Shown here piece by piece: positions 8,665 to 25,007 of a stretch of 64,000 bases of DNA. This DNA is from an uncultured Cryomorphaceae bacterium (GTDB taxonomy: Bacteria; Bacteroidota; Bacteroidia; Flavobacteriales; Schleiferiaceae). The position numbers and the translations under genes were made by a program. Location: NCBI GenBank assembly GCA_937120475.1, contig CAKZJV010000005.1:62001-126000 (forward strand), read 5' to 3'. Positions within the stretch are counted from its first letter, which is position 1. The number at the start of each line of letters is the position of its first letter. The notes below the pieces were generated by a model that was not told the origin of the DNA, made no database searches, and saw only the letters and a list, made by a program, of their open reading frames with translations.

Positions 8665-9639
8665 TTGATCGAGAAAACCATTCAGATTGAAAATGCCGAC
8701 CCGCGTGAACTGTACGGCAACAACAACACCTTCTTAAACATCATTCAATCCTATTTTCCCGAGGTGCGCATTACAGCACGTGGCCACACCATTAAAGTAA
8801 ACGGTGAGCCGCAACGCATTGAGGCCTTCGAGCAGAAAATAGAAGAAATACTGCACCATCTACATCGCTTTAATTCGCTTACTCCCAACCAACTGGAGCG
8901 AATTCTGAAGGATGAAATGGACAAGAGCCGTGAGGGGGAGGCTGCCACTGATACCATACTGTTCGGTACCAGCGGGCAGGCCATTAAAGCGCGCACCCAA
9001 AACCAGCGTAAAATGGTAAAGGCCATCAGTAATCACGATATGCTTTTTGCCGTAGGACCGGCCGGAACCGGGAAAACCTATACGGCCGTGGCCCTGGCGG
9101 TGCGTGCCCTGAAAAATAAGGAGGTGCGCTCCATCATTCTTACCCGCCCCGCGGTGGAGGCCGGTGAAAACCTGGGATTTTTACCGGGCGACCTGAAGGA
9201 AAAACTGGACCCCTACCTGCAACCCCTGTACGATGCCCTGCGGGATATGCTCCCACCCGAAAAACTGAACTTTTACCTGGAAAGTGGCACCATACAAATT
9301 GCACCCCTCGCCTTTATGCGGGGTCGAACGCTGGATCGGGCCTTTGTAATCCTGGACGAAGCGCAAAATACCACCCGCAGCCAAATGAAAATGTTCCTTA
9401 CCCGTATGGGAGCGGATGCGAAATTTATCATTACCGGTGACGCCAGCCAGATAGACCTGCCACGCAAACAGGTGTCAGGGCTTAAAGAGGCTATGTACCT
9501 GCTGCAGAACATTGAAGGGGTATCCATCATTCGCCTGAACCAGGAAGATGTGATCCGCCACCGCCTGGTGAAAGACATCATCAATGCCTATGAGGAGGAT
9601 GAAAGTAAAAGGGACGCTCAAAAAGACGCGAAAGCATGA
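8665..9639 (+). CDS. PhoH family protein (P-loop ATPase)
   Basis: A 324-residue PhoH-like ATPase, thought to act on RNA or in stress responses. It has an N-terminal KH-like region ([14 protein letters not shown]), a Walker A GPAGTGKT at residues 131-138, and the Walker B segment FVILDEAQN, followed by [11 protein letters not shown]. The start is TTG at 8665: an in-frame TGA lies two codons upstream and no ATG gives the conserved N-terminus. It overlaps purC by the ATGA motif, so the two are translationally coupled. Confidence 0.93.
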
Positions 9640-10589
9640 AAGCATTACAGCAAACCGATTTTAAACTAACCGGCCAAACCGCCTTTTACCGCGGCAAGGT
9701 TCGCGATGTGTACTCCGTAGGTGAAGACCTCCTGGTAATGGTGGCCACCGACCGAATTTCGGCCTTTGACGTGGTATTGCCCATAGGTATCCCCTTTAAG
9801 GGGCAGGTGCTGAACCAGATTGCCACCCGCTTTTTAGACCTTACCCGTGACATAGTGCCCAACTGGAAGCTGAGCTCTCCCGATCCGATGGTGACCATCG
9901 GCCGAAAAGCCCAACCTTTTAAAGTGGAAATGGTAATACGCGGTTACCTGGCCGGGCACGCCTGGCGCACCTATCGCTCCGGCATACGCGAGCTTTGCGG
10001 TGTGGTATTGCCCGAAGGACTTAAAGAGAATGATGCCTTTCCCGAACCCATTATCACCCCTACCACCAAAGCCGATCAAGGCACTCATGATGAGGACATC
10101 AGCCGCGAAGCTATATTGGAGCAAGGCATTGTGAGTGAAGCGGATTATGTACAACTGGAAAAATATACCCGCGCCCTTTTTGCCCGTGGACAGGAGTTTG
10201 CCCGCAAGCAAGGCTTGCTTTTGGTAGATACCAAATATGAATTTGGAAAATCGGCCGATGGAGAAATTATACTCATCGATGAGATACACACTCCCGACAG
10301 CAGCCGCTATTTTTACCGTGAGGGTTACGAGGAACGCCAGGAAAAAGGCGAGGCGCAAAAGCAATTATCCAAGGAGTTTGTGCGCCAGTGGCTTATTGAA
10401 AACGGCTTCCAGGGTAAGGAGGGACAGCGAGTTCCTGAAATGAACGATACCTTTGTGAACAGTGTAAGCGAACGCTATGTTGAGCTGTTCGAGAAAATAA
10501 CCGGGGAAGCTTTTGAGCGGCAAACTACCGATGGGCTTTCTGAAAGGATTGAAAAGAATATTGAAAACGCTTTAAATCAATTACCATGA
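9636..10589 (+). CDS. purC: SAICAR synthase (phosphoribosylaminoimidazole-succinocarboxamide synthase)
   Basis: This purine biosynthesis enzyme condenses CAIR with aspartate, using ATP. It has 317 residues, the longer form also seen in yeast and many Bacteroidota. Motifs seen are [20 protein letters not shown] near the N-terminus, [11 protein letters not shown], the [11 protein letters not shown] block, [13 protein letters not shown], and the C-terminal [12 protein letters not shown]. It overlaps phoH (ATGA) and is followed by the barrel gene, also with an ATGA overlap. The protein is complete. Confidence 0.97.
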
Positions 10590-11197
10590 AAAAAATTTTA
10601 ATTGCAGTGCTGCTGTTCGCAGGACTTCAGGCCAACGCCCAGATTTTTGAATTTGGATTGCGCGGAGGCGTAAACCTGCACGGAGTACAGGTAGAAGAGT
10701 TTGACGGTGATCAAACCATTGAAGACGTGGAAAGCGGAGACCGCAAACTGGGTTTTCACGCAGGGGCTTACGGACGTATTAAGCTGGCTACCTTTTTTAT
10801 ACAGCCTGAATTATTATACACCAATGTAAACGGTGAGGTACAAACCGAAAATGCAGACGGTTCTTCGCAAACCATTGACCTGGGCTTTAGCCGCCTGGAT
10901 ATTCCAGTAATTTTAGGAGTAGCCCTGGGGCCGGTACGCCTGGGCGTAGGCCCGGTAGCTACTTTCGCCATCAGCGAGCCCGGTGATGCCTTCGACAAAA
11001 GCTTTAACCAAGCCAATTTCGGTTACCAGGCTGGTTTGGGCCTCGACCTGGGAAAGCTCAGCATCGACCTACGCTACGAAGGGCCCTTCGGCAAAACTGC
11101 GGAAACCATTACCATTGGTGGTACCGACTATCAAACCGATACCCGCACCAACCAGATTATGTTAGGACTAGGCTTTGCCCTGTTTGAAAGTAACTAA
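10586..11197 (+). CDS. Porin-family outer-membrane beta-barrel protein
   Basis: A 203-residue protein with a signal peptide ([19 protein letters not shown]) and then a Gly-rich barrel typical of the Bacteroidota PorT-like/OMP beta-brl family ([43 protein letters not shown]). Its acidic loop is rich in Asp and Glu. Its role is unknown. It is the last gene of the phoH-purC operon, with an ATGA overlap to purC, and is followed by an intrinsic terminator. The link to purine synthesis is probably only shared transcription. Confidence 0.8.
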
Positions 11198-11220
11198 AGG
11201 TTTTAAAAATATGCTATAAA

Positions 11221-11248
11221 AGCCCTGGCCAATGCGAGGGCTTTTTTT
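11221..11248 (+). terminator. Intrinsic terminator of the phoH-purC-barrel operon
   Basis: The stem AGCCCT / AGGGCT with a 10-base loop is followed by seven T residues, 23 nt after the stop codon of the barrel gene. Confidence 0.8.
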
Positions 11249-11370: not shown

Positions 11371-13002
11371 ATGCGCCATACACTTTCCTTCGCCTTATCT
11401 TTTTGCAGTTGTATCGTTTTTGCCCAGCTGTCCACCCCCTCCGGAACCGTAAGCACCAATAGCTCGGGTACCGGCATCGGTATCGGCCAAACGGCCCCGG
11501 AACACCAATTGCACATTAAATACAACAATAACGCCAGCAGCACCAACGGCCTGCTTTACCTGCGGGCGGCTACCGCCAATGGCCTGGGAGGCACGGTAAG
11601 CCAGCCTTTCGGCATTCGTTTGCAATACGCCAATGAACTTACCAGTTATCCGCTGACCACGGTTTTTGACCTTTCACCTTCAGGAGCCCTGCAGGTGGGC
11701 GACCTGAGTGCCATTCCTCCAGCTGAACTGGGAATTACCCGTCACGACTTTTCGCAACACCTGGGCCTTTATAATGGTGAAAATACCCTCCGTTTTTCGG
11801 CCCAACAGCCGGTAATCAGTTGGAGTGGCAGCGAAAGCCTGCGTTTTAAGAACGGAAATTTCAGCGGTACCACCCTTTTGAGTTTACACGACAACCAGCG
11901 GGTGGGTATCAATACCGAAAGCCCGGAGGCACCTTTGCACATCGATAATCCTTCGCCCAACAACTCGGTAAACGATGGTACGGTGAATGGGCTGCTCATT
12001 AATTCGGGTGGACATTTCCCTCAAAACTATAGCCTGCTGGTCAAAAGTGCCTGGTTGCCGGAAGAAGGTATTTTTTCGGTAAGCGACCGGGGGTACGTGG
12101 GTATTGGCGCTGAAAACGGGGGTACGGCCCCCTTGTATATCAAGAATATGGATGCCGATGTTTCTGCCCCCAACACCACCAGTGGCATGATGATCCAGCA
12201 CAACAGCATGGCTGCTGATAAGTACAGTATCCGGGTGGCTACCGGCTTTTCGAGTACGGCTTTTACGGTGTCGGACAAGGGTTGGATTTGCTCCAACGGA
12301 ACGCCTTTTCCACAAGCGGCCCTCTCCCCCTTACATATTCGCAGCACCACGGCTAACAATAATTCCGATGGTACGGTAAATGGCCTGCTGATTGAAAACT
12401 TCAACGCCAACACTGATGGCAATTACAGCCTGAAGATCGATACGGAACTAGGTGAGGTGTTTTCGGTATCAGACCAGGGCAATGTGCTCATCAAAAACGT
12501 ATGGGCCACCAACAGCGGGGCTACCGGCCAACTAAACGGTTTAAAAATACTGACCAACGGCTACCGGGGCCACGATTACGCTTTTGAAATATGGACCGGC
12601 AATACCAATAAGATGTTCAGCGTATCACAATCCGGGCACGTGCACATTGGGCCGGACCTGAATTTTGATATTCCCGACAGTGATTTGTACCGCTTGTACG
12701 TACAGGACGGCATCAGAACCGAACGGGTGCGGGTGGATGTGGCCAGCCTGAACGGTTGGGCGGATTACGTTTTTGAAGAGGATTACCAAATGATGCCCCT
12801 GGCGGAACTGGAAAGCTATATTCAAAAAAACAAGCACCTGCCCGGGGTGCCCTCGGCTCAGCAGGTGGTGGAAGAGGGTATTGATTTGGCGGAAATGAAT
12901 AAAGTGCTGCTGGAAAAGGTGGAGGAGTTGACTTTGCGCAATATTTACTTAGATAAACGTCTAGATGATCTGGAAAAGAAAATGGCAAAGACAATTGATT
13001 AA
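11371..13002 (+). CDS. Modular repeat surface protein with a conserved C-terminal WADYVF domain
   Basis: A 543-residue exported protein with signal peptide MRHTLSFALSFCSCIVFAQ. The middle consists of about five degenerate modules of 45-60 residues, each with the pattern NGLLI...YSL.....FSVSD.G.V.IG (from about residue 185 to 430). The last 100 residues contain LNGWADYVFEEDYQMMPL, HLPGVPSAQQVVEEG and a coiled coil. This tail is common in Bacteroidota proteins annotated as tail-fibre-like, and it resembles the region before S74-type chaperone domains. No T9SS sorting domain is seen. It probably forms a trimeric or fibrous surface structure, which is inference. G+C is high, unlike the next genes. 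Confidence 0.65.
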   Translation: MRHTLSFALSFCSCIVFAQLSTPSGTVSTNSSGTGIGIGQTAPEHQLHIKYNNNASSTNGLLYLRAATANGLGGTVSQPFGIRLQYANELTSYPLTTVFDLSPSGALQVGDLSAIPPAELGITRHDFSQHLGLYNGENTLRFSAQQPVISWSGSESLRFKNGNFSGTTLLSLHDNQRVGINTESPEAPLHIDNPSPNNSVNDGTVNGLLINSGGHFPQNYSLLVKSAWLPEEGIFSVSDRGYVGIGAENGGTAPLYIKNMDADVSAPNTTSGMMIQHNSMAADKYSIRVATGFSSTAFTVSDKGWICSNGTPFPQAALSPLHIRSTTANNNSDGTVNGLLIENFNANTDGNYSLKIDTELGEVFSVSDQGNVLIKNVWATNSGATGQLNGLKILTNGYRGHDYAFEIWTGNTNKMFSVSQSGHVHIGPDLNFDIPDSDLYRLYVQDGIRTERVRVDVASLNGWADYVFEEDYQMMPLAELESYIQKNKHLPGVPSAQQVVEEGIDLAEMNKVLLEKVEELTLRNIYLDKRLDDLEKKMAKTID

Positions 13003-13065
13003 AGTTTAAAGTAGTACTAATACTGAATTAAATTTTGATAACTTGAAACTAAATCATCACATAAA

Positions 13066-13854
13066 TTGAGAATAGCAAATATTTCCCATAAGTATATCCT
13101 TCCACTGAAAGTAATTAAAGTCATATTGATGTCGGCTTTCTTCACAAGTGCTGCTTTATCTCAAGATTTATCGGTACTAAACGATTCTGCATTAAGCTAC
13201 AAGTACAGGTTCAAAATGGATAGCTGCATGGAAAGTTTATTTAATGAGAGACAATATCAAAATTTGGATTTAACCCAGCTCCGACAATATTATGATTTTC
13301 TCAAAAAAGAAATAAAATATTGCAAATATGACATTAATCGTAAAGAAAATAAATCCAACTTAGTAGAAGGTACAATACTAAAAGATTCCACGCTTTCTTC
13401 TGAAGAAATAGGGTTATTAACAAATAGTGAACTCATTTGTGTTGGAAATGTCATATCATTAAGAAGATATCCCCTAGAAGGATGTAACCGTTACCACACG
13501 ACTTATTTAATTGTAGTGAATGATGTTCTTTTCTCGATGTATGACATCAGTATAGGAGACACTATAGTCCTAAAATCCCAAGAAGGCTTTATTGGTCCAG
13601 ATTGCCGTGAAGGCGGAGACCGAATGCACGTTGGCATTTCTCACTACACCCCATATGATACTGGCGATGTAAAGCTCTTTTCTTTGACAAACGTCAACTA
13701 TTTCATTGACTCTATTCACGCAAATAAAAAATCTGCAAATATTAACTACAAAATTAGCCCCTACTTTTTCACCAACTTTGATTCTAATGTATTAAACAAT
13801 GATTTTGATAAAATACCTTACATTAAAGATTTCCTCACAAAATACTTTGATTAG
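13066..13854 (+). CDS. Exported protein with a domain often linked to secreted metalloproteases
   Basis: A 262-residue protein of unknown function. The start is uncertain: TTG at 13066 gives an N-terminus of 35 residues ending in a signal-like stretch (LMSAFFTSAALSQ), while ATG at 13129 gives only the short form. Residues 120-215 (LICVGNVISLRRY..., TTYLIVVNDVLF, IGDTIVLKSQEG) follow the pattern of a small beta domain that, as I recall, often precedes matrixin domains in other bacteria; here it is a separate gene. It overlaps the matrixin gene by 8 nt if that gene starts at 13847. It opens the AT-rich cluster: 13141-13200 has 22 G+C in 60. Confidence 0.55.
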   Translation: MRIANISHKYILPLKVIKVILMSAFFTSAALSQDLSVLNDSALSYKYRFKMDSCMESLFNERQYQNLDLTQLRQYYDFLKKEIKYCKYDINRKENKSNLVEGTILKDSTLSSEEIGLLTNSELICVGNVISLRRYPLEGCNRYHTTYLIVVNDVLFSMYDISIGDTIVLKSQEGFIGPDCREGGDRMHVGISHYTPYDTGDVKLFSLTNVNYFIDSIHANKKSANINYKISPYFFTNFDSNVLNNDFDKIPYIKDFLTKYFD

Positions 13855-15736
13855 TATTTTCATTTTAGCCGCACTTACATTTAGCTTGAATACAAATGGT
13901 CAGGTTAATCATACTAATTATGTCTTTTGTGGAAGATACGTAGAATGGAAAAATGTTCTAAGTGATCCGAATGATGATGGGCCTTTCCCAACATCCAGTA
14001 TTTACACACTGGACCCTCTAATTTACATCAAAGGATTTTATGACAAGATTTTCACCTTGACAGTTTTATATGATGATTCGGTGGCCGCCAGAAACGGATG
14101 GGTATCAGATATACAGGCAGCAAGTTCGGATTGGAATAATAGCTCTAATTATGCCCAAGTTTCTATAGACCCGCTAGGGCAGGTCGTAAGTGAGCCGATA
14201 TGGGAATTCCCATCAATCAATACAATTGCATTATCCAGTTCAGCTAGCAGCCCATTATTTGCTCCAGGGAGTAAGGCTGTGGGTAAGGCTTATCTATACC
14301 ACATTTACAGCAATTCTTGTACAAGCGATCCATCTACAACCTGGACTAAAGGTAGTGTAATAGTAGGTGCTGATATATTCTTTAATGTTGATAAATATCA
14401 ATTTTTCACTGGTTCAGGCCCTGCCGGTCCTTTTGACTATAGCGTAAAATCAATAACAATGCACGAGTTAGGTCACCTTTTGGGGCTTAATCATCATCCC
14501 TACATCGGTAAAAGAAGAGTTATGCATAAATCACATTCATCCAACAAAGTAAAACAGTTGCAACCCGAGGACATAACGGCAATCAATCGTCTCTATGGCT
14601 ATGATGGCCTTAATCAAGGTAGCGACCCTTTCTATAGCTCAATTCCATGCGATGCATTTAATCCTGTAATTCAGAATGGCCTCTTGGCAACTTCATCTGA
14701 TGGAGAAGACGATGACGTTGCTGAAGGTATAGAGTTATTTAACTCAGACCCTTGCAACAATTGTGTTAAAGATCCAAATGAAGACGGAATTGACTGCGGA
14801 ATATTTTCAGGATGTGGTGACTGCTCAGAAATCTGCACAGGCACAATCAATAGCCTATATATTTCTAAAAACTCCACACCTATCCCAGATTATAATCTTG
14901 TTAAAAACACCATAAGTATAAGTCCTGATGACAATATAATTGTTTCCGCGGGTGATTTTAAATATTTTAAGGCAGGACAATCCATCGAGATAATCCCTTC
15001 AGCAAGTACTGGGTCATTTTCCATTGAAAAGTTTGTGGATTCAGAACTTTTAATTGGAACTTGCGATTGTCCCAACATATGTTTACTTTTTTTACCTAAT
15101 ATAATAACCCCAGACTGTGATGGCATAAATGATTTCCTTTTTTTTCACTTTAATGGAGCAGATGAATATGAATTTACAGTTGCAAACAGGAATGGACCTA
15201 CTGTATTTAGTGAATCCGGAACCATTACAGGCAGTAGGTTATACGCATGGAATGGAATCACTAGTACTGGCGCTCCGGTTGCAGATGGAGAATATTTTTA
15301 TAGGTTAACACTTAAAAGCTCATGCGATGATTCAGAACTTATTGCTACGTCAAGCTTAGCCGTGCTTGGTGCTAAAGAATGCATGAATGAAAACTCACCA
15401 CCCACTCAACTTGTCACGTATTCAAATAACGATCCGATGCAGGTTGACACAAAAGGTCACAACAATAAGGCCTTTCAACTAAATAATCCATCACCAAATA
15501 AATATATCAAGGTTTATCCAAATCCCTTTGAAAGCCAACTTAGTATTGAATCCGTTGGAGAATATATTACCCAGTTAACTGTAATTGACGCAGCCGGTAA
15601 TCACATCTATTCCCAGAATAATATTAAATCAAACAGCTTATCACCATCCATATCTAATATGATCTCGCCAGGAGAATATATCCTCTTAATTAAAACTAAT
15701 CTCTCGAACTATAATGTCAGGATTATAAAGAAGTGA
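13847..15736 (+). CDS. Secreted matrixin-type zinc metalloprotease with two T9SS-type C-terminal modules
   Basis: A predicted secreted protease of 629 residues. I chose TTG at 13847 (MISIFILAALTFSLNTNGQ signal peptide) over ATG at 13799, which would overlap the previous gene by 56 nt. The zinc site HELGHLLGLNH starts at residue 206 and matches HExxHxxGxxH; VMH downstream fits the Met-turn and LQPEDITAINRLYGY fits the end of matrixin domains. A Cys-rich linker follows (CNNCVKDPNEDGIDCG). Near residues 410-520 a module resembles the gliding-motility-associated C-terminal domain (PNIITPDCDGINDF, WNG, DGEYFYRL). The last 75 residues are a type A T9SS sorting domain (KVYPNPFESQLSIES to VRIIKK). 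Substrates are unknown. Confidence 0.82.
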   Translation: MISIFILAALTFSLNTNGQVNHTNYVFCGRYVEWKNVLSDPNDDGPFPTSSIYTLDPLIYIKGFYDKIFTLTVLYDDSVAARNGWVSDIQAASSDWNNSSNYAQVSIDPLGQVVSEPIWEFPSINTIALSSSASSPLFAPGSKAVGKAYLYHIYSNSCTSDPSTTWTKGSVIVGADIFFNVDKYQFFTGSGPAGPFDYSVKSITMHELGHLLGLNHHPYIGKRRVMHKSHSSNKVKQLQPEDITAINRLYGYDGLNQGSDPFYSSIPCDAFNPVIQNGLLATSSDGEDDDVAEGIELFNSDPCNNCVKDPNEDGIDCGIFSGCGDCSEICTGTINSLYISKNSTPIPDYNLVKNTISISPDDNIIVSAGDFKYFKAGQSIEIIPSASTGSFSIEKFVDSELLIGTCDCPNICLLFLPNIITPDCDGINDFLFFHFNGADEYEFTVANRNGPTVFSESGTITGSRLYAWNGITSTGAPVADGEYFYRLTLKSSCDDSELIATSSLAVLGAKECMNENSPPTQLVTYSNNDPMQVDTKGHNNKAFQLNNPSPNKYIKVYPNPFESQLSIESVGEYITQLTVIDAAGNHIYSQNNIKSNSLSPSISNMISPGEYILLIKTNLSNYNVRIIKK

Positions 15737-16383
15737 AAGGGCTTTTTACATTAATCATAATGATTTTACTCACTAATTTTGCTTTGGGTCAAAGTCAGTT
15801 TTCGCTAATTTATCAATTGGCGTACCAACCTCAATCATTTACTACAACCGCAGATAACTTTGATCAGGAGTTTACCCCATCACTCAGCCACTCGATTAAC
15901 ATTACATTTTTGAGGATCTGGAAATCATCGGGTGTACGACTAACAACTGGATATGTAATATCTGACCCTAACCTTAAGAGGAACGAAAGAGGGGACCTTA
16001 CCATTGAGGATTTGAAATTGAGACTATTCAAGGTTTCAGGTAATTATGTTTTCAAGAAAGATTTTAAGAGGGGAAAGTCTATTTTACTTGAAGCAGGACC
16101 GGCATTTTTGATTCCCATAAATGAATCATCATCGCTCTTTGTTAATGAAACTGGCGGTATTCAGAGAAAAGTTGAGATTGACCAATTATATGCCTATAAT
16201 GGCAGGCCCTTCGTTGGGTTCAACACCAGTTTTTCATATTCATTTAAGTTCAACCAAAAGTCGATAAGGCCCGGCTGGGGTTGCGAGTTAGGCTTACCTC
16301 TTGAAGTATATTGGTTAACCGAAAGTGAGGGGAGGCCGAGCTTTTTGGGAGCTTTAAGAATAGGCGTTTTCTATGAGTTCTAG
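15733..16383 (+). CDS. Outer-membrane beta-barrel-like protein
   Basis: A 216-residue protein of unknown function. It starts with GTG at 15733, overlapping the matrixin stop by 4 nt (GTGA), and has the signal peptide MKGLFTLIIMILLTNFALGQ. The rest alternates aromatic and polar residues in strand-length blocks and ends YEF, as expected for a small outer-membrane barrel (FSLIYQLAYQPQSF, LEAGPAFLIPINES, GVFYEF). No family was recognised. The tight overlap suggests it is made together with the protease. Confidence 0.6.
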   Translation: MKGLFTLIIMILLTNFALGQSQFSLIYQLAYQPQSFTTTADNFDQEFTPSLSHSINITFLRIWKSSGVRLTTGYVISDPNLKRNERGDLTIEDLKLRLFKVSGNYVFKKDFKRGKSILLEAGPAFLIPINESSSLFVNETGGIQRKVEIDQLYAYNGRPFVGFNTSFSYSFKFNQKSIRPGWGCELGLPLEVYWLTESEGRPSFLGALRIGVFYEF

Positions 16384-16441
16384 AAAGTATTTAAAGACCA
16401 AAAGAACACCAGGCATTGATAGGGGCAATAAACCACAGCTT

Positions 16442-16870
16442 ATGAAAAATATTTGGGGTGTTATTTTAATGCTGACCGGATTTACAATGTCAGCACAGGA
16501 ATTACGCTTTGAGGAGATTCAGGCGAAATGTACCCAAATACCTGATGGCAAATACATCATAGACAACCAAAAGGATTACCAAGCTCTCTTGGATAATCGA
16601 TCCCCCCATCCAGAGTGTTCAACCTACCGTTCGCCTGAAATTGATTTTAACAAGTATACACTAGTCGGTTTTGCAGTAAGCGTGAAGGGTTGTCAAAGTC
16701 CAGTTTCAAGCCTTAGTTATTCTGATGACCTTGACTCTTGCCATGTTACTTTAAACATTACTACTTATGGTTTATGCAAAAGGCGAAATCGCATTAAACG
16801 GTGGTTACTTATTCCAAATGCCACAGCGGAAAGGTTGACCCATCTGAACATAGAAATTACAGAAGAATAA
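16442..16870 (+). CDS. Secreted cysteine-containing protein, paralogue 1
   Basis: A 142-residue exported protein, family not recognised. I chose the ATG at 16442 because it starts a signal peptide (MKNIWGVILMLTGFTMSAQ); an in-frame ATG at 16373 would add 23 polar residues before it. The mature part has five cysteines and the pattern PDGKYII, YQALLDNRS, PEIDF, YTLVGF, VKGC, GLCKRRN, RWLLIPN. Roughly half of its residues match the protein encoded at 17296, including all five cysteines, so the two are duplicates separated by one gene. It may form disulfides in the periplasm or outside the cell. Confidence 0.65.
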   Translation: MKNIWGVILMLTGFTMSAQELRFEEIQAKCTQIPDGKYIIDNQKDYQALLDNRSPHPECSTYRSPEIDFNKYTLVGFAVSVKGCQSPVSSLSYSDDLDSCHVTLNITTYGLCKRRNRIKRWLLIPNATAERLTHLNIEITEE

Positions 16871-16873
16871 GCA

Positions 16874-17299
16874 ATGGGATACAAAAAGTTATTATTAATA
16901 GCTCTCTTTGGAATAACATCCCCGGTATTAGCTCAGTCTAACCCTGGCGATAATAATTCCCTGGAAGCCGAAATAATTGGTACATGGGTGAACGTTAAAA
17001 ACTACGACCCCTACCCGCATAGCCAAATGGAGGCTGACACTAATGATTTCCTGATATTTTCCCCAAACAATACTTATGAGCACATTAATCCTGGAAGTAC
17101 CAACATACAAGGAGAATGGAAGCTTTGTTCCGGTACTGTAAAAAAGAGTTTGGAAATAAGTTACTATTTAGGGGCTCGCTTCCCATGTGGTGAAAACCCG
17201 CGAGAAGAATGTTTTATAGATGAGAAGGGCGTGTTGAATTTTCACATTTTGGGGAGACATGGGGTATGCGAAATCGCATATAAAAAGCAACTATTATGA
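16874..17299 (+). CDS. Small exported lipocalin-like protein
   Basis: A 141-residue protein with signal peptide MGYKKLLLIALFGITSPVLAQ. The mature part has the outline of lipocalin-like domains: EIIGTWVNVKNY early, then FLIFSPNNTYEHI, then IQGEWKLC. Three cysteines are present in the second half. The assignment is weak because only the GxW and strand pattern are seen. It lies 3 nt after paralogue 1 and overlaps paralogue 2 by ATGA, so it sits between the two duplicated genes and is cotranslated with them. Confidence 0.55.
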   Translation: MGYKKLLLIALFGITSPVLAQSNPGDNNSLEAEIIGTWVNVKNYDPYPHSQMEADTNDFLIFSPNNTYEHINPGSTNIQGEWKLCSGTVKKSLEISYYLGARFPCGENPREECFIDEKGVLNFHILGRHGVCEIAYKKQLL

Positions 17300-17718
17300 G
17301 AAAAATAAGCTGCGTTGTTTTGCTCCTGATGTGTTTCACCGTAAGCGCCCAGGTTTCTTACGAAGAGATTCAGATAAACTGTAGCCAAGCCCGCGATGGC
17401 AAATACATTATTACTACCCATAAAGAGTATCAAGCTTTAATAGATAATCGTTCTTCTCACCCCAACTGTTCAGGCTACACCTTTCCTGAAATTGATTTTA
17501 CAAGCTATACTTTGATAGGGTTTGTTGCTGGTGTGAAAGGCTGCTATAGCCCACTAGTTAATATAGATTATTCCACTAATGGTGAAGATTGTGAGGTTGA
17601 CTTAAACATAAGCACACGTGGCTTATGTAAAATGAAAAATATGGTGGTGAAATGGCTCCTGATACCCCGCACACCTAAAGCAAACATCCAGCTGGAAATC
17701 AAAATCCGTGAAGAATAG
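17296..17718 (+). CDS. Secreted cysteine-containing protein, paralogue 2
   Basis: A 140-residue exported protein with signal peptide MRKISCVVLLLMCFTVSAQ. It is a paralogue of the protein at 16442, with the shared blocks RDGKYII, EYQALIDNRS, PEIDF, YTLIGF, VKGC, RGLCK and KWLLIP and all five mature cysteines conserved. Its function is unknown. It overlaps the lipocalin-like gene by 4 nt (ATGA) and is overlapped by the next barrel gene, which starts at a GTG inside its last codons. The duplication is old enough that the DNA is no longer obviously repeated. Confidence 0.65.
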   Translation: MRKISCVVLLLMCFTVSAQVSYEEIQINCSQARDGKYIITTHKEYQALIDNRSSHPNCSGYTFPEIDFTSYTLIGFVAGVKGCYSPLVNIDYSTNGEDCEVDLNISTRGLCKMKNMVVKWLLIPRTPKANIQLEIKIREE

Positions 17719-18412
17719 GACCGTAATCGTTAGAGGTGCTTTATTGGTGGCCGTGTTTATTTCAATACTTTCTTCAATGAAAGCCCAAAACACCGCACAC
17801 CTTTCGGCAGGCACCTATTTCGCACAGGATTACTTTTCATTCCGATACGAAGGTTTATACAACCGCTGGAAAGGCTGGATACGTGAAACGCCTACTTACC
17901 AGGTTTCAGTAAGTTATCAAAGGGTTTTTGGTGAACACCTTTTGTTAGGAGTGGGTCTGCAGTCCTTCTTTTACCGGGTAAATTTTGAAAATTCAGAATT
18001 CCGGGACGGAAGCGGTTTCATCAATGACTTAAAGCCTGAATATTCCGTGCGCAATTACCTGGTTCCATTCTTAAGCATTGGATATACCACCGATAAAACC
18101 GAGAGGTTTAGCTTCTTTGCTTTGGGCTCCTTCCGCTACGCCCTACCTACCAACGCTTACGACCGTGTGACTTATCCTGACGGAAGTCAAGAAGAACTTC
18201 CACCATATCAAAGTACCGATGATTATAAAGAAGGGCTGATGCATGGCCCGGGGCTTAGATTGGGGGCTGCTTTCAGTCCTAGAAGAACGTTGGAAAAACA
18301 GTGGCTATCCTACCAGCTGGCTTTAGACTCACAACTTTTGTTTTATTCGGAATCCGATTTCAACCCCAAGTTCCTTTTTGGGCCGGAACTATCTGTGGCT
18401 TATAATTTCTAA
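17708..18412 (+). CDS. Outer-membrane beta-barrel-like protein of a tandem array (1)
   Basis: A 234-residue protein with a GTG start at 17708 that overlaps the previous stop by 11 nt, and a signal peptide ending near SSMKAQ. Strand-like blocks follow (YQVSVSYQRVFGEHLLLGVGLQ, LVPFLSIGYTTD, GPELSVAYNF), ending in Phe as most outer-membrane barrels do. It shares a YPDGSQEE-type loop and general layout with the protein at 20456 (YPDGSIVE), suggesting distant paralogy. Its function is unknown. Confidence 0.6.
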   Translation: MKNRTVIVRGALLVAVFISILSSMKAQNTAHLSAGTYFAQDYFSFRYEGLYNRWKGWIRETPTYQVSVSYQRVFGEHLLLGVGLQSFFYRVNFENSEFRDGSGFINDLKPEYSVRNYLVPFLSIGYTTDKTERFSFFALGSFRYALPTNAYDRVTYPDGSQEELPPYQSTDDYKEGLMHGPGLRLGAAFSPRRTLEKQWLSYQLALDSQLLFYSESDFNPKFLFGPELSVAYNF

Positions 18413-18423
18413 AAGCAATAGAA

Positions 18424-19059
18424 TTGAAAGCAGCTAAACTGACTCTTTTATTCATCATTCCCATTAGTGTTCTTTCCCAAAAGCTACCGAAAAACAGTTT
18501 TTCAGTATCCCTTGGTTCAAGAACCTATAATTCCGATTATTTCAGGCATTCTCTTGATCGTTTTACAAAGCCTTCTTCGAATAACACCACTTTCCCTTAC
18601 CTAAATGCTTCCTATGACTATAATTTAACCAAGAAGTTCTCAATGGGGTTTATAATGGCTTATGAGTTCCGGCCCTTTGAATACAGCTTTGTAGATAGTG
18701 TGGAGTTTTATCTTTTCACTGAAGGTTTTGAGGCGAGTAGTAATATATTTTCTACCGGACTGCAAGCCTCTTGGCTAGTGATTGACCAAAGAAAATACCA
18801 CTTCAAGCTTTTGATGGACGCGCAGTATCATTTTCTCGATGCAGGCAAGCTACTCAATGATGAATATTTTTCTTTGAGTGTTCAATTGCCTAATGAGTTT
18901 TTGATAAGCCAAAATTATGAGCGAGCCCTAAGCATATTCATAACACCGGGCTTAAGAACCTATTCCTTGGGGCTTAAACGTAACGATGAAGGTAACCGGT
19001 CATTTAATAAGTTTTTCTATTCGATTGATATTAACGTAGGCTCACGATTTTATTTTTAA
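18424..19059 (+). CDS. Outer-membrane beta-barrel-like protein of a tandem array (2)
   Basis: A 211-residue protein with a TTG start at 18424, 11 nt after the previous stop, and signal peptide MKAAKLTLLFIIPISVLSQ. The mature part (FSVSLGSRTYNSDYF, FPYLNASYDYNLTKKFSMGF) alternates strand residues and ends in NVGSRFYF, a typical C-terminal barrel strand. No named family was recognised. The protein is complete. Confidence 0.6.
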   Translation: MKAAKLTLLFIIPISVLSQKLPKNSFSVSLGSRTYNSDYFRHSLDRFTKPSSNNTTFPYLNASYDYNLTKKFSMGFIMAYEFRPFEYSFVDSVEFYLFTEGFEASSNIFSTGLQASWLVIDQRKYHFKLLMDAQYHFLDAGKLLNDEYFSLSVQLPNEFLISQNYERALSIFITPGLRTYSLGLKRNDEGNRSFNKFFYSIDINVGSRFYF

Positions 19060-19103
19060 AAAAGCACCAGCTCTTCATTATTTCAATCAAATACCTGTTC
19101 AAA

Positions 19104-19781
19104 TTGAAAAACACTTTATTCGTTAGCCTGATTAGCCTTTTTTGCCTGACCGGTTTACGGGGTCAAAATTCAAATTTGGAAATTTCCATTTCTAAAGAGT
19201 GGCGCTCCGGGCCTAGGTTTAATGCGGGGGAACCTTTTCGGTTTGAAAATACCCAAGCTCTTTTTACAGATGGTTTTCAAAGCAGGCTTCAATTTAATTG
19301 GTGCATTATGGAGTTTGGGCGTAAAAAGGCTTGGCGATGGTTTGTTTCTCCCAACGCAGCTTATTCCTATTACTCCTACACTGAGGATGAAATGACCCAA
19401 GGTGCTCGTTTAAAAATCAACCTTTCTTATATGGCACCTGGGCTTAATACCCGCCTATGGTGGCGTACATCCAAGCTTTTTGGAATGTTTGGCGAGATAG
19501 GTTATCAAAGATACTTTTTGGTTTCCAGCAAATCTTATGAAAAGGATATGGGCAATGACACTTATAAGCCCGCCTCAGACCCTGGCATCAACGAAAACAT
19601 AAACGATTTAAACAATTTTCAATCTTTACTAGGTCTTACCTATGGTAAAAAACATCAGGTTTTAATTAAATCAGGCATAAACATTTCGAATCAGCACTTT
19701 ATCGATATTTTAGAGGATAGCAACAATGCCTATTCCGTAGCTCCCTTCGTAGCCATCGGCTACATTTTGGTATTTGATTAA
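19104..19781 (+). CDS. Outer-membrane beta-barrel-like protein of a tandem array (3)
   Basis: A 225-residue protein with a TTG start at 19104 and signal peptide MKNTLFVSLISLFCLTGLRGQ. The pattern resembles its neighbours: an aromatic-rich mature part (NAAYSYYSYTEDEM, MFGEIGYQRYFLV) and the last strand PFVAIGYILVFD. A 44-nt gap to the gene before it is the longest in the cluster, so an internal promoter is possible, but none is clear. Its function is unknown. Confidence 0.58.
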   Translation: MKNTLFVSLISLFCLTGLRGQNSNLEISISKEWRSGPRFNAGEPFRFENTQALFTDGFQSRLQFNWCIMEFGRKKAWRWFVSPNAAYSYYSYTEDEMTQGARLKINLSYMAPGLNTRLWWRTSKLFGMFGEIGYQRYFLVSSKSYEKDMGNDTYKPASDPGINENINDLNNFQSLLGLTYGKKHQVLIKSGINISNQHFIDILEDSNNAYSVAPFVAIGYILVFD

Positions 19782-19794
19782 ATGCGCTACACTC

Positions 19795-20433
19795 ATGAAA
19801 CACTTAAAGCTAATACTCTACATAATTCTTTTTGCTGTTGCACTGAATGCTATTCGGGCGCAAAGCCCTGATATCCGCCTAACCATTCCTTTTTCGAGGG
19901 TAGAAAACCTGGGGCAATTGGACGAATACCATAATTATTACACCTATGGTGCGGAAATCGGTATCGAAGGAAAATGGCCGGTGGATATAGGCCTCTTTTA
20001 TTTAAACCTTAAAAAACATAACTCCCGCTTTGAGGCGTATCGGCCTTGTGATTTTATAATGTTGGAAGACTGTGAAAATCCTCCCGTAAATCACCTTTTC
20101 CGTATGTACTTAAGTCACCCATTTGATCTATGGGATATTTACACGGACGGAAAACAATCTTTGAAACTCAATACCAATGTGGGCCTGGTCACCAACTGGA
20201 ACCTGAACTCGCATCGCAATTTCTGGTCTATCGGGCTACGAAGCAATATTGGCCTTGCTTATGAAATTAATCGCTTTCAATTTGGTTTTTACCCTTTAAA
20301 CCTGGAAGCTTTCATCGGTTGGTATTATGACTATCCAATATCTAATTCTCAAGAAGGATATTATAATAACAGGTTTAATTCGTTTCTATACTTCTATAAC
20401 TTTCGTCTGGGCTATTACTTATTCAAAGACTGA
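19795..20433 (+). CDS. Outer-membrane beta-barrel-like protein of a tandem array (4)
   Basis: A 212-residue protein. I chose the ATG at 19795, which begins a signal peptide (MKHLKLILYIILFAVALNAIRAQ); a TTG seven codons upstream is in frame but would add a polar leader and overlap the previous gene. The mature part is rich in Tyr, Phe and Asn (YHNYYTYGAEIGIEG, FYPLNLEAFIGWYYDYP, YFYNFRLGYYLFKD). It looks like a small barrel; no family was recognised. Confidence 0.55.
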   Translation: MKHLKLILYIILFAVALNAIRAQSPDIRLTIPFSRVENLGQLDEYHNYYTYGAEIGIEGKWPVDIGLFYLNLKKHNSRFEAYRPCDFIMLEDCENPPVNHLFRMYLSHPFDLWDIYTDGKQSLKLNTNVGLVTNWNLNSHRNFWSIGLRSNIGLAYEINRFQFGFYPLNLEAFIGWYYDYPISNSQEGYYNNRFNSFLYFYNFRLGYYLFKD

Positions 20434-20455
20434 AGTATTTCTAATCCTACCATAA

Positions 20456-21148
20456 ATGTCTTTTCGCAATGCGATATTAAAAATAGGTTTTGGCATGGTG
20501 TGTTTGATCCTCGGGAACTTGTCCTGCAAAGCCCAAAGCAGCCTCATCCTCAAAACCGGAATCGGTTTGAAATCCAAGAGCTTCACCTTTGCCAATACTT
20601 TTTTGGAAGAAAGTTTTCGGGATAACGTAAAGAATAAGCCTGCCTACCAATTTGGCATCGGTTATCAATACCAGTGGAACTCGTTTTCACACCTTTGGGT
20701 GGATGTATCTTACGTAATACGCGATACGGACTATGAATTTGAACTTCGTTCCGAAAATAATGACCCATCCATTACCACAGAAGAAATGGGTGTGCTACGT
20801 TTTATGGATATTGCCTTGGGGTATGGCTTTCAATGTTTCGAGGGTAACTCCTGGTCAATTGACACACGCCTGGGTGGTATTCTGGGCATCCCGCTAAGCT
20901 TAAAATCCCAATACGAATACCCGGATGGAAGCATTGTAGAAACTGATGAAACCTTTTTACCGAAAGCAGCCCTGTACGGTGCACAACTGGAGCCCGTATT
21001 CAACTTTAAACTGAACTCCGATTTCAGTTTATACAGCAGCTTACCCCTGCGTCTTTTTTGGGTACAGAACAAAGCCTTTCGCGGAGAAGCCTACAATCCA
21101 CGTTGGGAGGCTATGGTACACTTGGGTATCCGCTATCAAATGAATTAA
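20456..21148 (+). CDS. Outer-membrane beta-barrel-like protein of a tandem array (5)
   Basis: A 230-residue protein, the last gene of the cluster, with an ATG start at 20456 and a signal peptide ending near LSCKAQ. A cysteine precedes the cleavage site (LGNLSCKAQ), so a lipoprotein is a weak alternative. Blocks such as YQFGIGYQYQW, MDIALGYGFQCF and VHLGIRYQMN fit a barrel. It is related in layout to the protein at 17708. It converges with the DnaQ/GIY-YIG gene, 15 nt away, with no hairpin between them. Confidence 0.6.
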   Translation: MSFRNAILKIGFGMVCLILGNLSCKAQSSLILKTGIGLKSKSFTFANTFLEESFRDNVKNKPAYQFGIGYQYQWNSFSHLWVDVSYVIRDTDYEFELRSENNDPSITTEEMGVLRFMDIALGYGFQCFEGNSWSIDTRLGGILGIPLSLKSQYEYPDGSIVETDETFLPKAALYGAQLEPVFNFKLNSDFSLYSSLPLRLFWVQNKAFRGEAYNPRWEAMVHLGIRYQMN

Positions 21149-21163
21149 AGGAGATACAGAGAT

Positions 21164-22417
21164 TTATACTCCTTCCATAAGGACAAACTCCCTGCCCAAT
21201 ATCCCCAACTTCAGCAGTTCCGTAAATTCAGGGCGCGGCTCCACCGGTACCAACGACTTTTCCAGGCGTTCCTTACGGCTGATTTGCTCATGGAGCGAGT
21301 AGTAAAAATACCCGGCCAGTTGGCCACCTTTAACCACTAGGGCAGCTCTTTCGCGGTTATTGCGCCCCCGGCTGCTGTACACGGCTTCCTCCGGAAAATC
21401 CCTCAATAGCTCCAATTGCTTTTGCTTGGCTTCCGCATTAGGATTTCTGCGGTACATACGGATGGTGCGCAGGGCAATTTTAAAGCTTTCGGCCTTTAGC
21501 AGGGGCTGTTTTTTACCGCCTTCATCCAGGGGTTTAACCGTCATTTGTGTTTTGGATGATTGGGTACTCAGGTAAATACCAAAATCCAATTGCAGGGGCA
21601 CCCCCGAGTTGTAGGGTGGGTTCACCTTTTCCACCTCTTCGGTTTTCTTCATCCGCGCAATCAGCCAGTTACCGGTAGCCTCGGTGGTGATGGTATGCAC
21701 CGCTTCCCTGAGCTTTCCGGCCTTATCGTTTTCAGCTACAAAAAGACGGTTGAGCGCATTTTTAATATTGTCGGAAGTACCAATGTAGAGCACTTTCCCT
21801 TTTTGATCGTGCAGGTAAAACAGTCCCTTATTGTACTTTACCGAACGCCTTAAATCACTGATCTTATCGCCAATGGCATCGTTCTCCTGTATGCTTTGGC
21901 CCAGTACGCTGATGTCCTTCTGCTTATCCTTTTCCTGTAACATACCGAACAGCTCTAAAGTGGCGCGGGCATCGCCTTCCGCGCGGTGGCGTTGCGCCCG
22001 GTAAATTCCCAGCTCTTCGCAAATACGATCGAGCCCGTAGGCCGGAAGACCCGGTATCAGCTTTTCCGCCAGGGCAATGGTATCCAGGGTTTTTATTTCG
22101 AAAGGATACCCCAGGCGGCCGAACTCCTGCCGCAGCATGCGGTAATCGAAATCCACATTATGCCCAACCAGTACCGCATCGCGCGTAAGCTCTAAAATAC
22201 GTTTGGCTATTTCGTGAAAGCGCGGAGCGCGCATCAGCATTTTAGGGGTAATGCCGGTAATTTTGGTCACGTATTGCTGCACCTCGCGATGGGGATGTAC
22301 CAAACTGATCAACTGATCGGTAATTTCCGAGCCATCGTAACGGAAAAGGGCAATCTCCATAATGGCCTCTTGACCGAACTTACCTCCCGTAGATTCAATA
22401 TCTAAGATGCAATACAC
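21164..22417 (-). CDS. DnaQ-type DEDDh exonuclease fused to a GIY-YIG-like domain
   Basis: A 417-residue cytoplasmic protein. Residues 1-165 are a 3'-5' exonuclease domain with the DEDDh residues in place: DIEST (D6, E8), VGHNVDFDYRML, and HRAEGDAR. Residues about 195-270 align with the GIY-YIG nuclease domain of UvrC/Cho (GLFYLHDQKGKVLYIGTSDN), but the first motif reads GLF instead of G-I/V-Y and the usual LRKR arginine is replaced (IKNAL). That domain may therefore have lost nuclease activity. Similar fusions are known in several phyla and are thought to act in DNA repair. The ATG at 22415-22417 gives the right N-terminus. Confidence 0.85.
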   Translation of the reverse strand: MYCILDIESTGGKFGQEAIMEIALFRYDGSEITDQLISLVHPHREVQQYVTKITGITPKMLMRAPRFHEIAKRILELTRDAVLVGHNVDFDYRMLRQEFGRLGYPFEIKTLDTIALAEKLIPGLPAYGLDRICEELGIYRAQRHRAEGDARATLELFGMLQEKDKQKDISVLGQSIQENDAIGDKISDLRRSVKYNKGLFYLHDQKGKVLYIGTSDNIKNALNRLFVAENDKAGKLREAVHTITTEATGNWLIARMKKTEEVEKVNPPYNSGVPLQLDFGIYLSTQSSKTQMTVKPLDEGGKKQPLLKAESFKIALRTIRMYRRNPNAEAKQKQLELLRDFPEEAVYSSRGRNNRERAALVVKGGQLAGYFYYSLHEQISRKERLEKSLVPVEPRPEFTELLKLGILGREFVLMEGV

Positions 22418-22529
22418 GGCCGCGAAGATACATATCTATGCCACGGTAAATTGCCTTGGGAACCTATCCCTAAAGTTTTTTGCCCTTCTAAACTACAGAG
22501 TACTTATTTTGCCGTGGTTTAAATCATAC

Positions 22530-25007
22530 ATGAAAACCCGCATTACCGCCATAATAACTTTACTGATGAGCCTGATGGCTGCCCCTACCTACGCCCAGGT
22601 GTTCGAGCTCCGCGGGCAGGTGGTGGATACAGCCGGAAAGGGCGTGGCACAAGCCTACCTGGTTTTTGAGGAAACGGGTTTTTTAGTGATGACCGATGAC
22701 AGTGGCTATTTCGAGCTGGAGTTGGAACAGGCGGTGCACCACCTATTGGTAAAAAAACCGGGTTATATATCGCAAAAGCTGCACTTTCCCTATCATCACA
22801 ATGAACCCATCCGGTTAACGCTCGAAAAAGTAGATACCACCACTACCTTCGATGCCGAGCGATTGGTACGCCTGGCCATTGCTCACCGCGCCATTAATGA
22901 AGCCAACTACGTTTCGTACGAAGCGCAGGTGTATAAAAAGAACATCGCCTACTTTAGTAAAATACCCTTTGAAATATGGCGAATATCAGGTGTGGTTATC
23001 CCCTCGCGGCTGGATTCGGGTATGGTGTTTATCAGCGAAAAAACAGCTGATTTTTACTATAAAGATGCCCGTAACTTCAACGAAAACCTGCGGCATTATC
23101 AAACGGCCGGCCGCTTCTCTATTCCCGGGTGGCATTACCTCCCCGACCTGGATATTTCCTTTTACCACACCAAAATTTATTTGCAAAACATTAGTACCGT
23201 AGCCTACAATTCACCCCTGGCCCCCAAAAGCATTCGCTTCTATAACTTTTACCCGGCCGGGCAATACCAGGAAGGCCCGCGAACGGTGTACCGCATACGC
23301 CTGGAACCCAAAAAGAAGTACTCCCCCAACTTTTCGGGCTTTATGGAAATTTACGGGGACAGCCTATACCGCCTGTCTTCCATTGCCGTTTCGCTGGGTG
23401 ACCGCAATATGCTGGAAGTGGTGGATAGTGTGGATTTTGAGCAGGTATTTTACCATACCGACACCGCCTACCACCAGGCCATGCAAAAGCAATTGTACCA
23501 CGCTTTTATTGTGGGTTTTGACGGCACCTATTCCGTCTATAACTTTTTCAAAAAACACCGCTTTTTCAATCCGGAAGAAGAAGCCCTGAGCTGTGATGCG
23601 GAAGTGATGGTTTTGGAAGACAGTAACATTGTGCACGGTACGATTTGGGACAGCCTGCGCCCCGTGACCCTTTCCAAGCCGGAGCGGGATATCCTCCAAA
23701 CCCACCCCCATCCCAACCGCTGGATATTCCAGGAGCAAAGGGGAACGGCACCCATTTTTGAGGAACGGCCCTTCCGTTGGTACGACTTTTTTGTAGCCGG
23801 TTATGACTTTGACAGTGCCCGCACTACCACTAAACTTTCCCCGCTATGGTATGGCCTGGGTTACAATACCGTGGAAGGCACTTACCTGCGTTATCAGTTG
23901 GAGCACTACCGTTATTATGAAGATGCCGAATGGTACCTGCAACCCAGCCTGCGCTACGGCTTTTCCAGCCGCACTTTTTATTACGAGCTCCAAACCAGCT
24001 ATCTTTTTAACCTGGACCAGCCCCGTAAGCTGGGGTTTCATGCCGGGCACGGCATCAGCCAGTTTAACGATGAGCAGCCCATACTGCCCATCCTCAACAG
24101 CCTGTACACCCTTTTCCTGAGCCGCAACTACATGAAGTTGTACGGTCACGATTTTGTAAAGGCCTCCTATGATTTTGAACCGGTAAACGGTTTGGAAGTA
24201 AGTACCAGTGCTGAACTGGCCCACCGCTTTCCCCTTTACAACAGCACCGATTTTCTCATTATCGGCAACCCCTTTTCCTTTACCCCCAACAACCCCGATT
24301 TTTCTCCGGTGATTAACAGCACCGGTTTTGAGGAACACCAGGCCCTGAACCTGCATTTATCGGTGGTATATCAGTTTAACCAGCTTTATAAAAGAGTGAA
24401 CGGGCGCAAGGTAAACCTCTCCTCCACTTACCCCCGCGTTTATTTCAATTATTACAAGGGGGTGCCCACTTCCTTCACCAAAACCAATTACGATCACCTC
24501 AACCTGGGCATTACCGCACAACAGCACTTTGGCCGGGTGGGTTTATCCAAAATCGATATTAATGCCGGTAGCTTTTTGAACCGTGCCCACGTACCTTTTG
24601 TGGACTTTCGCCACTTCAACGGTATCCAAACCTTTTTCCTGCAACCCGCACCGAGGCGCACCAATAGCATCCGCCAGTTCAGTACCCTGCCCTACTATGA
24701 TTTTTCAACCGACCAGCATTACCTCGAACTGCACTTTGAACACGATTTTTCAGGCCTGCTGCTGGGTGCGGCCCCGCTTTTGGCACCACTTAAACTCCAT
24801 GCCTTTATGGGGCTCAACTACCTGAATACGGCCGGGCGTGATCAGTTTACAGAATTCTTCCTGGGGGTGGATAACATTTTAAACGTAATGCGGGTGGAGC
24901 TGGCCGGTGGCTTCGATAACTTCCTGAAATTCACCCCCTCCATGCGTATCGGAGTGGATTTTGATTACCGCTATTATTTCGATCACCGCAAAAAATTGCG
25001 TGAATAA
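22530..25007 (+). CDS. DUF5686 family protein: carboxypeptidase-like regulatory domain plus outer-membrane barrel
   Basis: An 825-residue outer-membrane protein. I chose ATG 22530, which starts a signal peptide (MKTRITAIITLLMSLMAAPTYAQ); the open frame continues upstream but overlaps the divergent gene's start. Residues 27-105 are a CarboxypepD_reg beta-sandwich (LRGQVVDTAGKGVAQAYLVF, DDSGYFEL). The middle contains the DUF5686 region (AHRAINEANYVSYEAQVYKK) and the C-terminal half a barrel ending with DFDYRYYFDHRKKL. The family resembles TonB-dependent receptors without a plug; its cargo is unknown. It is followed 50 nt later by the LVIVD lipoprotein genes. Confidence 0.85.
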   Translation: MKTRITAIITLLMSLMAAPTYAQVFELRGQVVDTAGKGVAQAYLVFEETGFLVMTDDSGYFELELEQAVHHLLVKKPGYISQKLHFPYHHNEPIRLTLEKVDTTTTFDAERLVRLAIAHRAINEANYVSYEAQVYKKNIAYFSKIPFEIWRISGVVIPSRLDSGMVFISEKTADFYYKDARNFNENLRHYQTAGRFSIPGWHYLPDLDISFYHTKIYLQNISTVAYNSPLAPKSIRFYNFYPAGQYQEGPRTVYRIRLEPKKKYSPNFSGFMEIYGDSLYRLSSIAVSLGDRNMLEVVDSVDFEQVFYHTDTAYHQAMQKQLYHAFIVGFDGTYSVYNFFKKHRFFNPEEEALSCDAEVMVLEDSNIVHGTIWDSLRPVTLSKPERDILQTHPHPNRWIFQEQRGTAPIFEERPFRWYDFFVAGYDFDSARTTTKLSPLWYGLGYNTVEGTYLRYQLEHYRYYEDAEWYLQPSLRYGFSSRTFYYELQTSYLFNLDQPRKLGFHAGHGISQFNDEQPILPILNSLYTLFLSRNYMKLYGHDFVKASYDFEPVNGLEVSTSAELAHRFPLYNSTDFLIIGNPFSFTPNNPDFSPVINSTGFEEHQALNLHLSVVYQFNQLYKRVNGRKVNLSSTYPRVYFNYYKGVPTSFTKTNYDHLNLGITAQQHFGRVGLSKIDINAGSFLNRAHVPFVDFRHFNGIQTFFLQPAPRRTNSIRQFSTLPYYDFSTDQHYLELHFEHDFSGLLLGAAPLLAPLKLHAFMGLNYLNTAGRDQFTEFFLGVDNILNVMRVELAGGFDNFLKFTPSMRIGVDFDYRYYFDHRKKLRE

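What the first reader, a model, noticed from the sequence alone, without database searches (positions are those of the whole stretch)
13066..21148. Eleven-gene AT-rich cluster of exported proteins around a secreted metalloprotease
Seen: eleven plus-strand genes with overlaps or gaps of at most 44 nt, every product with a signal peptide, and much lower G+C than the flanks (22 of 60 at 13141-13200 against 37 of 60 at 9121-9180). Inference: one transferred operon that builds a surface or secretion-linked assembly, with a matrixin protease, a duplicated cysteine protein, a lipocalin-like protein and six barrels. I know of no described system with this content.
Basis: partly seen in the sequence, partly recalled or inferred. 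Interest (0 to 1): 0.62.

Follow-up and report, generated by a model that had tools for sequence, protein, structure and literature searches.

The report
Inserted secreted-protease cassette with inhibitor-like neighbour
A marine-type Bacteroidota genome carries an extra block of twelve exported-protein genes, absent from its closest relatives, built around a type IX-secreted matrixin protease whose upstream neighbour has a predicted fold like that of animal protease inhibitors (TIMPs); it is one of a family of similar cassettes that swap the enzyme they carry.

Summary
The eleven AT-rich, co-directional, exported-protein genes are real. The unit is larger than reported: it starts at 11371 with a normal-GC gene (called ADH here) and runs to 21148, 12 genes. 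In six relatives the flanking genes are adjacent, so this is an insertion in this genome (or, less likely, a set of losses). Homologous ADH genes head comparable cassettes in the family: a type IX secretion (T9SS) cargo or other exported enzyme (matrixin, M43 protease, GH16 or unknown), then one to six small exported, partly barrel-like proteins. The cargo and barrel part is AT-rich in 11 of 12 loci, so low G+C is not by itself proof of foreign origin. The protease g2 has HExxHxxGxxH, a Met-turn methionine and a T9SS type A tail. Its upstream, overlapping neighbour g1 accompanies this protease in all three genomes that have it; its core domain model is medium-confidence, but all 50 listed structural matches are NTR/TIMP-type folds. 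That resembles the potempin-karilysin pairs of Tannerella. Best reading: a cassette that secretes a matrixin, with g1 as periplasmic inhibitor or latency guard and barrels and small proteins as surface partners (roles inferred). Inhibition is untested.

The parts
11371..13002 (+). ADH: exported fibre-like protein with conserved C-terminal ~100-residue domain (DYVF..Y....L...I..N.HLP.VPSA..V...G.D..EMN..LL...EELTL); first gene of the cassette
   Evidence: Heads homologous cassettes in G010, G030, G018 and others; no Pfam, NCBIfam or useful PHROG match
13066..13854 (+). g1: exported 262-aa protein with helical N-terminal part and an NTR/TIMP-like OB-fold domain at about residues 112-210; candidate inhibitor/partner of g2
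   Evidence: AF2 of the domain, mean pLDDT 62.5, core 70-86; all 50 listed VIA-align rows are NTR/C345C/TIMP/agrin-NtA folds, best Z 5.7; found with g2 in the same 3 of 395 genomes of the order
13799..15736 (+). g2: T9SS-exported matrixin metalloprotease (HELGHLLGLNH zinc site, Met-turn M, CHU_C domain 432-507, T9SS type A sorting tail 572-645, ends RIIKK)
   Evidence: PF00413 1.4e-8, PF13585 2.9e-12, PF18962 8.4e-6; TIGR04183 9.5e-7 over cut-off; MMP-1 match 0.001
15733..16383 (+). g3: small exported protein, possible outer-membrane barrel (C-terminal F)
   Evidence: Weak match to g11 (E 0.003); a barrel-size gene follows the protease also in G010 and G030
16442..16870 (+). g4: exported cysteine protein, paralogue of g6 (ORF opens at 16373, likely start ATG 16442)
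   Evidence: 53.5% identical to g6
16874..17299 (+). g5: lipocalin-like exported protein
   Evidence: Matches the Lipocalin_4 domain at the C-terminus of the G018 ADH
17296..17718 (+). g6: exported cysteine protein
   Evidence: Homologue in the G018 cassette (39%, 1.6e-29), Owenweeksia sp. MAG
17708..18412 (+). g7: small exported barrel-like protein, homologue of g11
   Evidence: HHalign g7/g11 77-89%; homologue in G018 cassette
18424..19059 (+). g8: small exported barrel-like protein (ends RFYF)
   Evidence: 34% identical to G018 cassette gene, 1.8e-33
19104..19781 (+). g9: small exported protein, barrel nature unproven
   Evidence: No family match; leader and Q at +1
19795..20433 (+). g10: small exported protein, barrel nature unproven (ORF opens at 19774, likely start ATG 19795)
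   Evidence: No family match; leader and Q at +1
20456..21148 (+). g11: small exported outer-membrane barrel-like protein; near-native codon usage
   Evidence: OMP_b-brl 6.5e-4, below cut-off; 32% identical to G018 cassette gene
11218..11247 (+). terminator-like hairpin after the upstream OMP gene, kept from the ancestral junction; the inserted DNA starts after it
   Evidence: Same hairpin at the empty junction of G002

Best explanation
The block 11371-21148 is an inserted cassette of the kind 'ADH gene - secreted enzyme - small surface proteins'. Shown: it is absent from the same site in six relatives; g2 is a matrixin with a type IX sorting tail; homologous cassettes elsewhere carry other enzymes; g1 sits directly upstream of and overlaps g2, and occurs with this protease in all three genomes that have it. 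Inferred: g1, an exported protein with an NTR/TIMP-like OB domain, stays in the periplasm or on the outer membrane and binds the catalytic domain of g2, keeping it inactive until it has crossed the outer membrane by the T9SS, as potempins are reported to inhibit the KLIKK proteases. The protease is then released or anchored by its tail and digests proteins outside the cell, while ADH, the lipocalin-like protein, the cysteine proteins and the barrels act at the surface as binding or docking partners.
For: Empty site: OMP gene and convergent exonuclease adjacent in G002, G001, G018, G016, G011, G020. Same order ADH-g1-protease-barrel in G010 and G030. G018 cassette shares ADH, g6, g7, g8 and g11 homologues but carries an M43 protease. 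Of 16 strong-clade ADH genes, 13 are followed by a large exported protein (8 with a type A T9SS tail by HMM) and 10 then by 1-6 small exported proteins. g2: HELGHLLGLNH-type site and M conserved in all three, T9SS tail, SprA in genome. g1: OB/NTR fold expected from sequence before the model was run; all 50 listed VIA rows agree, and Foldseek lists TIMP-2, MMP-13/TIMP-2 and MMP-3/TIMP-1 among its first rows. Protease genes directly preceded by inhibitor genes is the reported rule for KLIKK proteases (PMC4404884; PMC7296668).
Against: g1 gives no significant sequence or Foldseek match to any inhibitor (E 0.12 or worse; HHalign to bacterial TIMP-family proteins 0.5%); Z below 8 may mean only a common arrangement. 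A TIMP inhibits through an N-terminal cysteine; g1 has about 80 residues before the domain and no such cysteine. A g1 homologue in G023 stands alone, with no protease beside it. No expression data; barrels g3, g8, g9, g10 are not proven.
Confidence: 0.5

Rival explanations
1. The cassette is a T9SS cargo with accessory outer-membrane proteins in which g1 is not an inhibitor but a structural partner (chaperone or substrate-binding NTR domain), and the barrels are secretion shuttles or anchors for the cargo, as SprF/PorP-like proteins are for type B cargo.
For: PorP/SprF-like shuttle genes lie directly downstream of type B cargo genes (PMC12618676); here small barrel-like genes lie downstream of the cargo in 10 of 16 loci; NTR domains also occur in non-inhibitors (C3, meteorin, PCOLCE, agrin).
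Against: g2 ends in a type A tail, for which PorV is the reported shuttle; its CHU_C domain is internal; none of the barrels scanned matches the NCBIfam PorP/SprF model.
Confidence: 0.3
2. No joint function: a hotspot between an OMP gene and an exonuclease where unrelated exported-protein genes accumulated; the neighbours are passengers.
For: G005 carries a different block at the same site (L055); codon usage drifts from very atypical (g1-g4) to normal (g11, ADH), as if of different ages.
Against: Four gene families plus ADH recur together in G018 at another chromosomal site, and ADH-g1-g2-barrel in G010 and G030 at others; tight spacing throughout.
Confidence: 0.15
3. The block is ancestral and was lost in the relatives rather than gained here.
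For: Sporadic presence (3 of 395 genomes of the order for the protease) is compatible with either.
Against: Six relatives with clean junctions, and a retained terminator-like hairpin in the closest one, would need parallel exact losses; other cassettes lie at different sites.
Confidence: 0.05

Closest known systems
KLIKK proteases and potempins of Tannerella forsythia (karilysin-PotA)
   Same: T9SS-exported matrixin; gene for a smaller exported protein directly upstream; several protease classes in equivalent loci; the g1 domain is a predicted five-stranded OB-type barrel, and from memory PotA is an OB-fold inhibitor (Ksiazek et al. 2023, paper not held)
   Different: g1 is 262 aa with a Q-rule leader, not a small lipoprotein; no sequence similarity shown; inhibition untested; embedded in a cassette with ADH, cysteine proteins and barrels; the C-terminus is RIIKK, not the conserved KLIKK domain
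Animal MMP-TIMP pairs
   Same: Matrixin beside a protein with an NTR/TIMP-like fold (model only)
   Different: No N-terminal inhibitory cysteine, extra N-terminal part, no detectable sequence homology
Type B T9SS cargo with PorP/SprF-like shuttle (Flavobacterium johnsoniae)
   Same: Exported cargo gene followed by outer-membrane-protein genes
   Different: Cargo tail is type A; downstream proteins do not match the PorP/SprF model

Membership tests
Matrixin (peptidase M10) | HExxHxxGxxH zinc site followed by a Met-turn methionine, PF00413 above cut-off | tested here: met
   HELGHLLGLNH...VM in g2, conserved in G010 and G030; PF00413 35.2 bits against cut-off 24
T9SS type A cargo | Signal peptide plus C-terminal TIGR04183 tail; T9SS in the genome | tested here: met
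   TIGR04183 28.7 bits against cut-off 23; SprA 2641.7 bits in the same genome
T9SS type B cargo with PorP/SprF shuttle | C-terminal CHU_C/TIGR04131 signal and downstream PorP/SprF-family gene | tested here: not met
   CHU_C is internal (432-507 of 645), TIGR04131 below cut-off, no PorP/SprF match among g3-g5 and g7-g11
Potempin (KLIKK inhibitor) | Gene directly upstream of a T9SS-exported protease | tested here: met
   g1 overlaps g2 by 56 nt; same order in G010 and G030
Potempin (KLIKK inhibitor) | Small outer-membrane lipoprotein | tested here: not met
   262 aa; leader ends ALSQ-D, no lipobox cysteine; reported upstream ORFs are 360-550 bp and predicted lipoproteins
Potempin (KLIKK inhibitor) | Inhibits the downstream protease | not testable with these tools
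   needs a protein assay
TIMP/NTR fold | Five-stranded OB/NTR fold | tested here: inconclusive
   All 50 listed VIA rows NTR-type, best Z 5.7, but Z under 8 and pLDDT 62.5; Foldseek E 0.29 or worse
TIMP/NTR fold | Free N-terminal Cys (CxC) for zinc chelation | tested here: not met
   g1 sequence after the leader starts QDLSVLND

The most novel reading that the evidence does not exclude
Free-living Bacteroidota carry exchangeable secretion cassettes in which a constant fibre-like lead protein (ADH) and small barrels go with a swapped hydrolase, and the matrixin version brings its own TIMP-like-fold inhibitor, an independent bacterial counterpart of the MMP-TIMP pair outside Tannerella.
Probability: 0.3. 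Interest if true: 0.65.

Novelty: new variant of a known kind. Interest (0 to 1): 0.5.

Why it matters
If g1 inhibits g2, protease-inhibitor pairs guarding T9SS proteases would extend from one oral bacterium to environmental Bacteroidota, with a TIMP-type fold next to a matrixin. The ADH-cargo-barrel rule would also give a way to find uncharacterised secreted enzymes and their surface partners by gene order.

Tried and rejected
Phage origin of ADH: no match in 50,697 phage records, PHROG matches weak and unnamed. Plasmid relatives of g2: none. PDB sequence search with g1 profiles: no meaningful match. HHalign of g1 with PF00965-type proteins of the order: no match. A phylum g1 hit in G484 was a stretch of a large unrelated T9SS protein, rejected. 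Phylum sample for g2: none outside this genome. HHalign of single barrels against a known OMP family: not significant for g3, g8, g9, g10. A home-made strand-alternation score separated poorly and was not used as proof. Direct or inverted repeats at the insertion ends: at most 7 nt. Bacteroidota-type promoter scan found nothing convincing upstream of ADH. The genome-contig scan with g6 gave one relative. The absence of potempin structures among the 50 shown rows was not taken as evidence.

Full report
Setting. The window is part of a 3.65 Mb Bacteroidota genome in 9 contigs. The nearest named relative of one cassette gene is an Owenweeksia sp. MAG. The genome has the T9SS translocon SprA.

Observation. 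The eleven genes, their strand, spacing, leaders and low G+C are as reported. The leaders all end in a small residue followed by Gln, the Bacteroidetes Q-rule (PMC5837995). Codon usage deviates most in g1-g4 and hardly in g11.

Boundaries. In G002, the closest relative (flanking proteins about 67-93% identical), and in G001, G018, G016, G011 and G020, the gene corresponding to 10586-11197 is followed directly by the convergent exonuclease of 21164-22417. The G002 junction keeps the same terminator-like hairpin that lies at about 11218-11247 in the window. So the inserted DNA runs from just after that hairpin to about 21160, and includes the normal-GC gene 11371-13002. No target duplication or terminal repeat was found. 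G005 carries other genes at this site.

The lead gene. The protein of 11371-13002, called ADH here for its fibre-like look (a label, not a function), has a conserved C-terminal domain with no Pfam or NCBIfam family. A profile of that domain finds it in 17 of 88 genomes of the family, in a strong and a weaker group. Sixteen strong-group loci were read. In 13 the next gene or genes encode a large exported protein: a matrixin in three (this window, G010, G030), an M43 protease in G018, a GH16-like protein in G019, others unknown. Eight of them carry a type A T9SS tail by HMM. In 10, one to six small exported proteins follow. In 11 of 12 loci with usable flanks the cargo and barrel part is lower in G+C than its flanks, by 0.077 on average. 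AT-richness therefore goes with the cassette class, whatever the host.

The G018 cassette shares ADH, g6, g7, g8 and g11 homologues with the window in a different order and at another chromosomal site (between a tRNA-guanine transglycosylase-like gene and a glycosyltransferase-like gene, names from sequence), and fuses a lipocalin-like domain to ADH. This is the best evidence that these genes belong together. The G010 cassette has a truncated tyrosine integrase and a tRNA-Val next to it, and the G098 cassette transposase genes (rve and HTH_Tnp_1): hints of mobility.

The protease. g2 has a matrixin zinc site and Met-turn conserved in three genomes, a Cys-rich linker, a CHU_C domain and a type A tail. 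No cysteine in the segment before the catalytic region is conserved in all three, so no conserved cysteine switch was seen. This protease type is found in 3 of 395 genomes of the order and nowhere else in a phylum sample.

The upstream partner. g1 is found in the same three genomes, always between ADH and the protease, and alone in a fourth, G023. From its sequence I expected an NTR/TIMP-like OB domain. A full-length model was poor (pLDDT 39); the trimmed domain with four homologues reached 62.5, with a core of 70-86 and five strands. Foldseek gives no significant match, yet meteorin NTR, TIMP-2 and MMP-TIMP complexes are among its first rows. VIA-align's 50 listed rows are all NTR, C345C, TIMP or agrin NtA domains, best Z 5.7. 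This is a consistent but not conclusive fold call. Sequence profiles do not connect g1 to TIMP-family proteins.

Comparison. In Tannerella forsythia every KLIKK protease gene is preceded by a gene for a small predicted lipoprotein (PMC4404884), later named potempins and said to inhibit the downstream protease specifically (PMC7296668). From memory, PotA is a five-stranded OB-fold inhibitor of the matrixin karilysin; that paper is not held. The window pair plausibly works in the same way, but g1 fails the lipoprotein and size features and is not filed as a potempin.

What is inferred only: inhibition by g1, surface location and role of ADH, g4-g6 and the small proteins, and co-transcription.

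Noticed in passing
L065:2256-10746 (own genome, contig C7, about 2216255-2224745): The second ADH-like gene of this genome heads a cluster with a barrel-size protein, a 2099-aa RHS/SpvB-type protein with a Ntox23 domain and a small downstream gene.
   Followed up: partly
L066:7858-8712, L071:76-924, L073:9409-10263, L084:2326-3141: A second partner class follows ADH in some genomes: about 270-285-aa lipoprotein-like proteins without a credible Pfam match.
   Followed up: no
L014:1659-3666: The G030 matrixin homologue is split by stops or frameshift, perhaps a decaying gene or an assembly error.
   Followed up: no
L055:10882-13413: G005 has a different block of minus-strand genes, one with a weak OmpA-like match, at the same chromosomal site: a variable site.
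   Followed up: partly
L079:2506-11382: G020 has six ADH-type genes in tandem.
   Followed up: no
window 22407-25007: Large DUF5686 protein with a carboxypeptidase-regulatory-like domain next to the site, conserved in the relatives.
   Followed up: no
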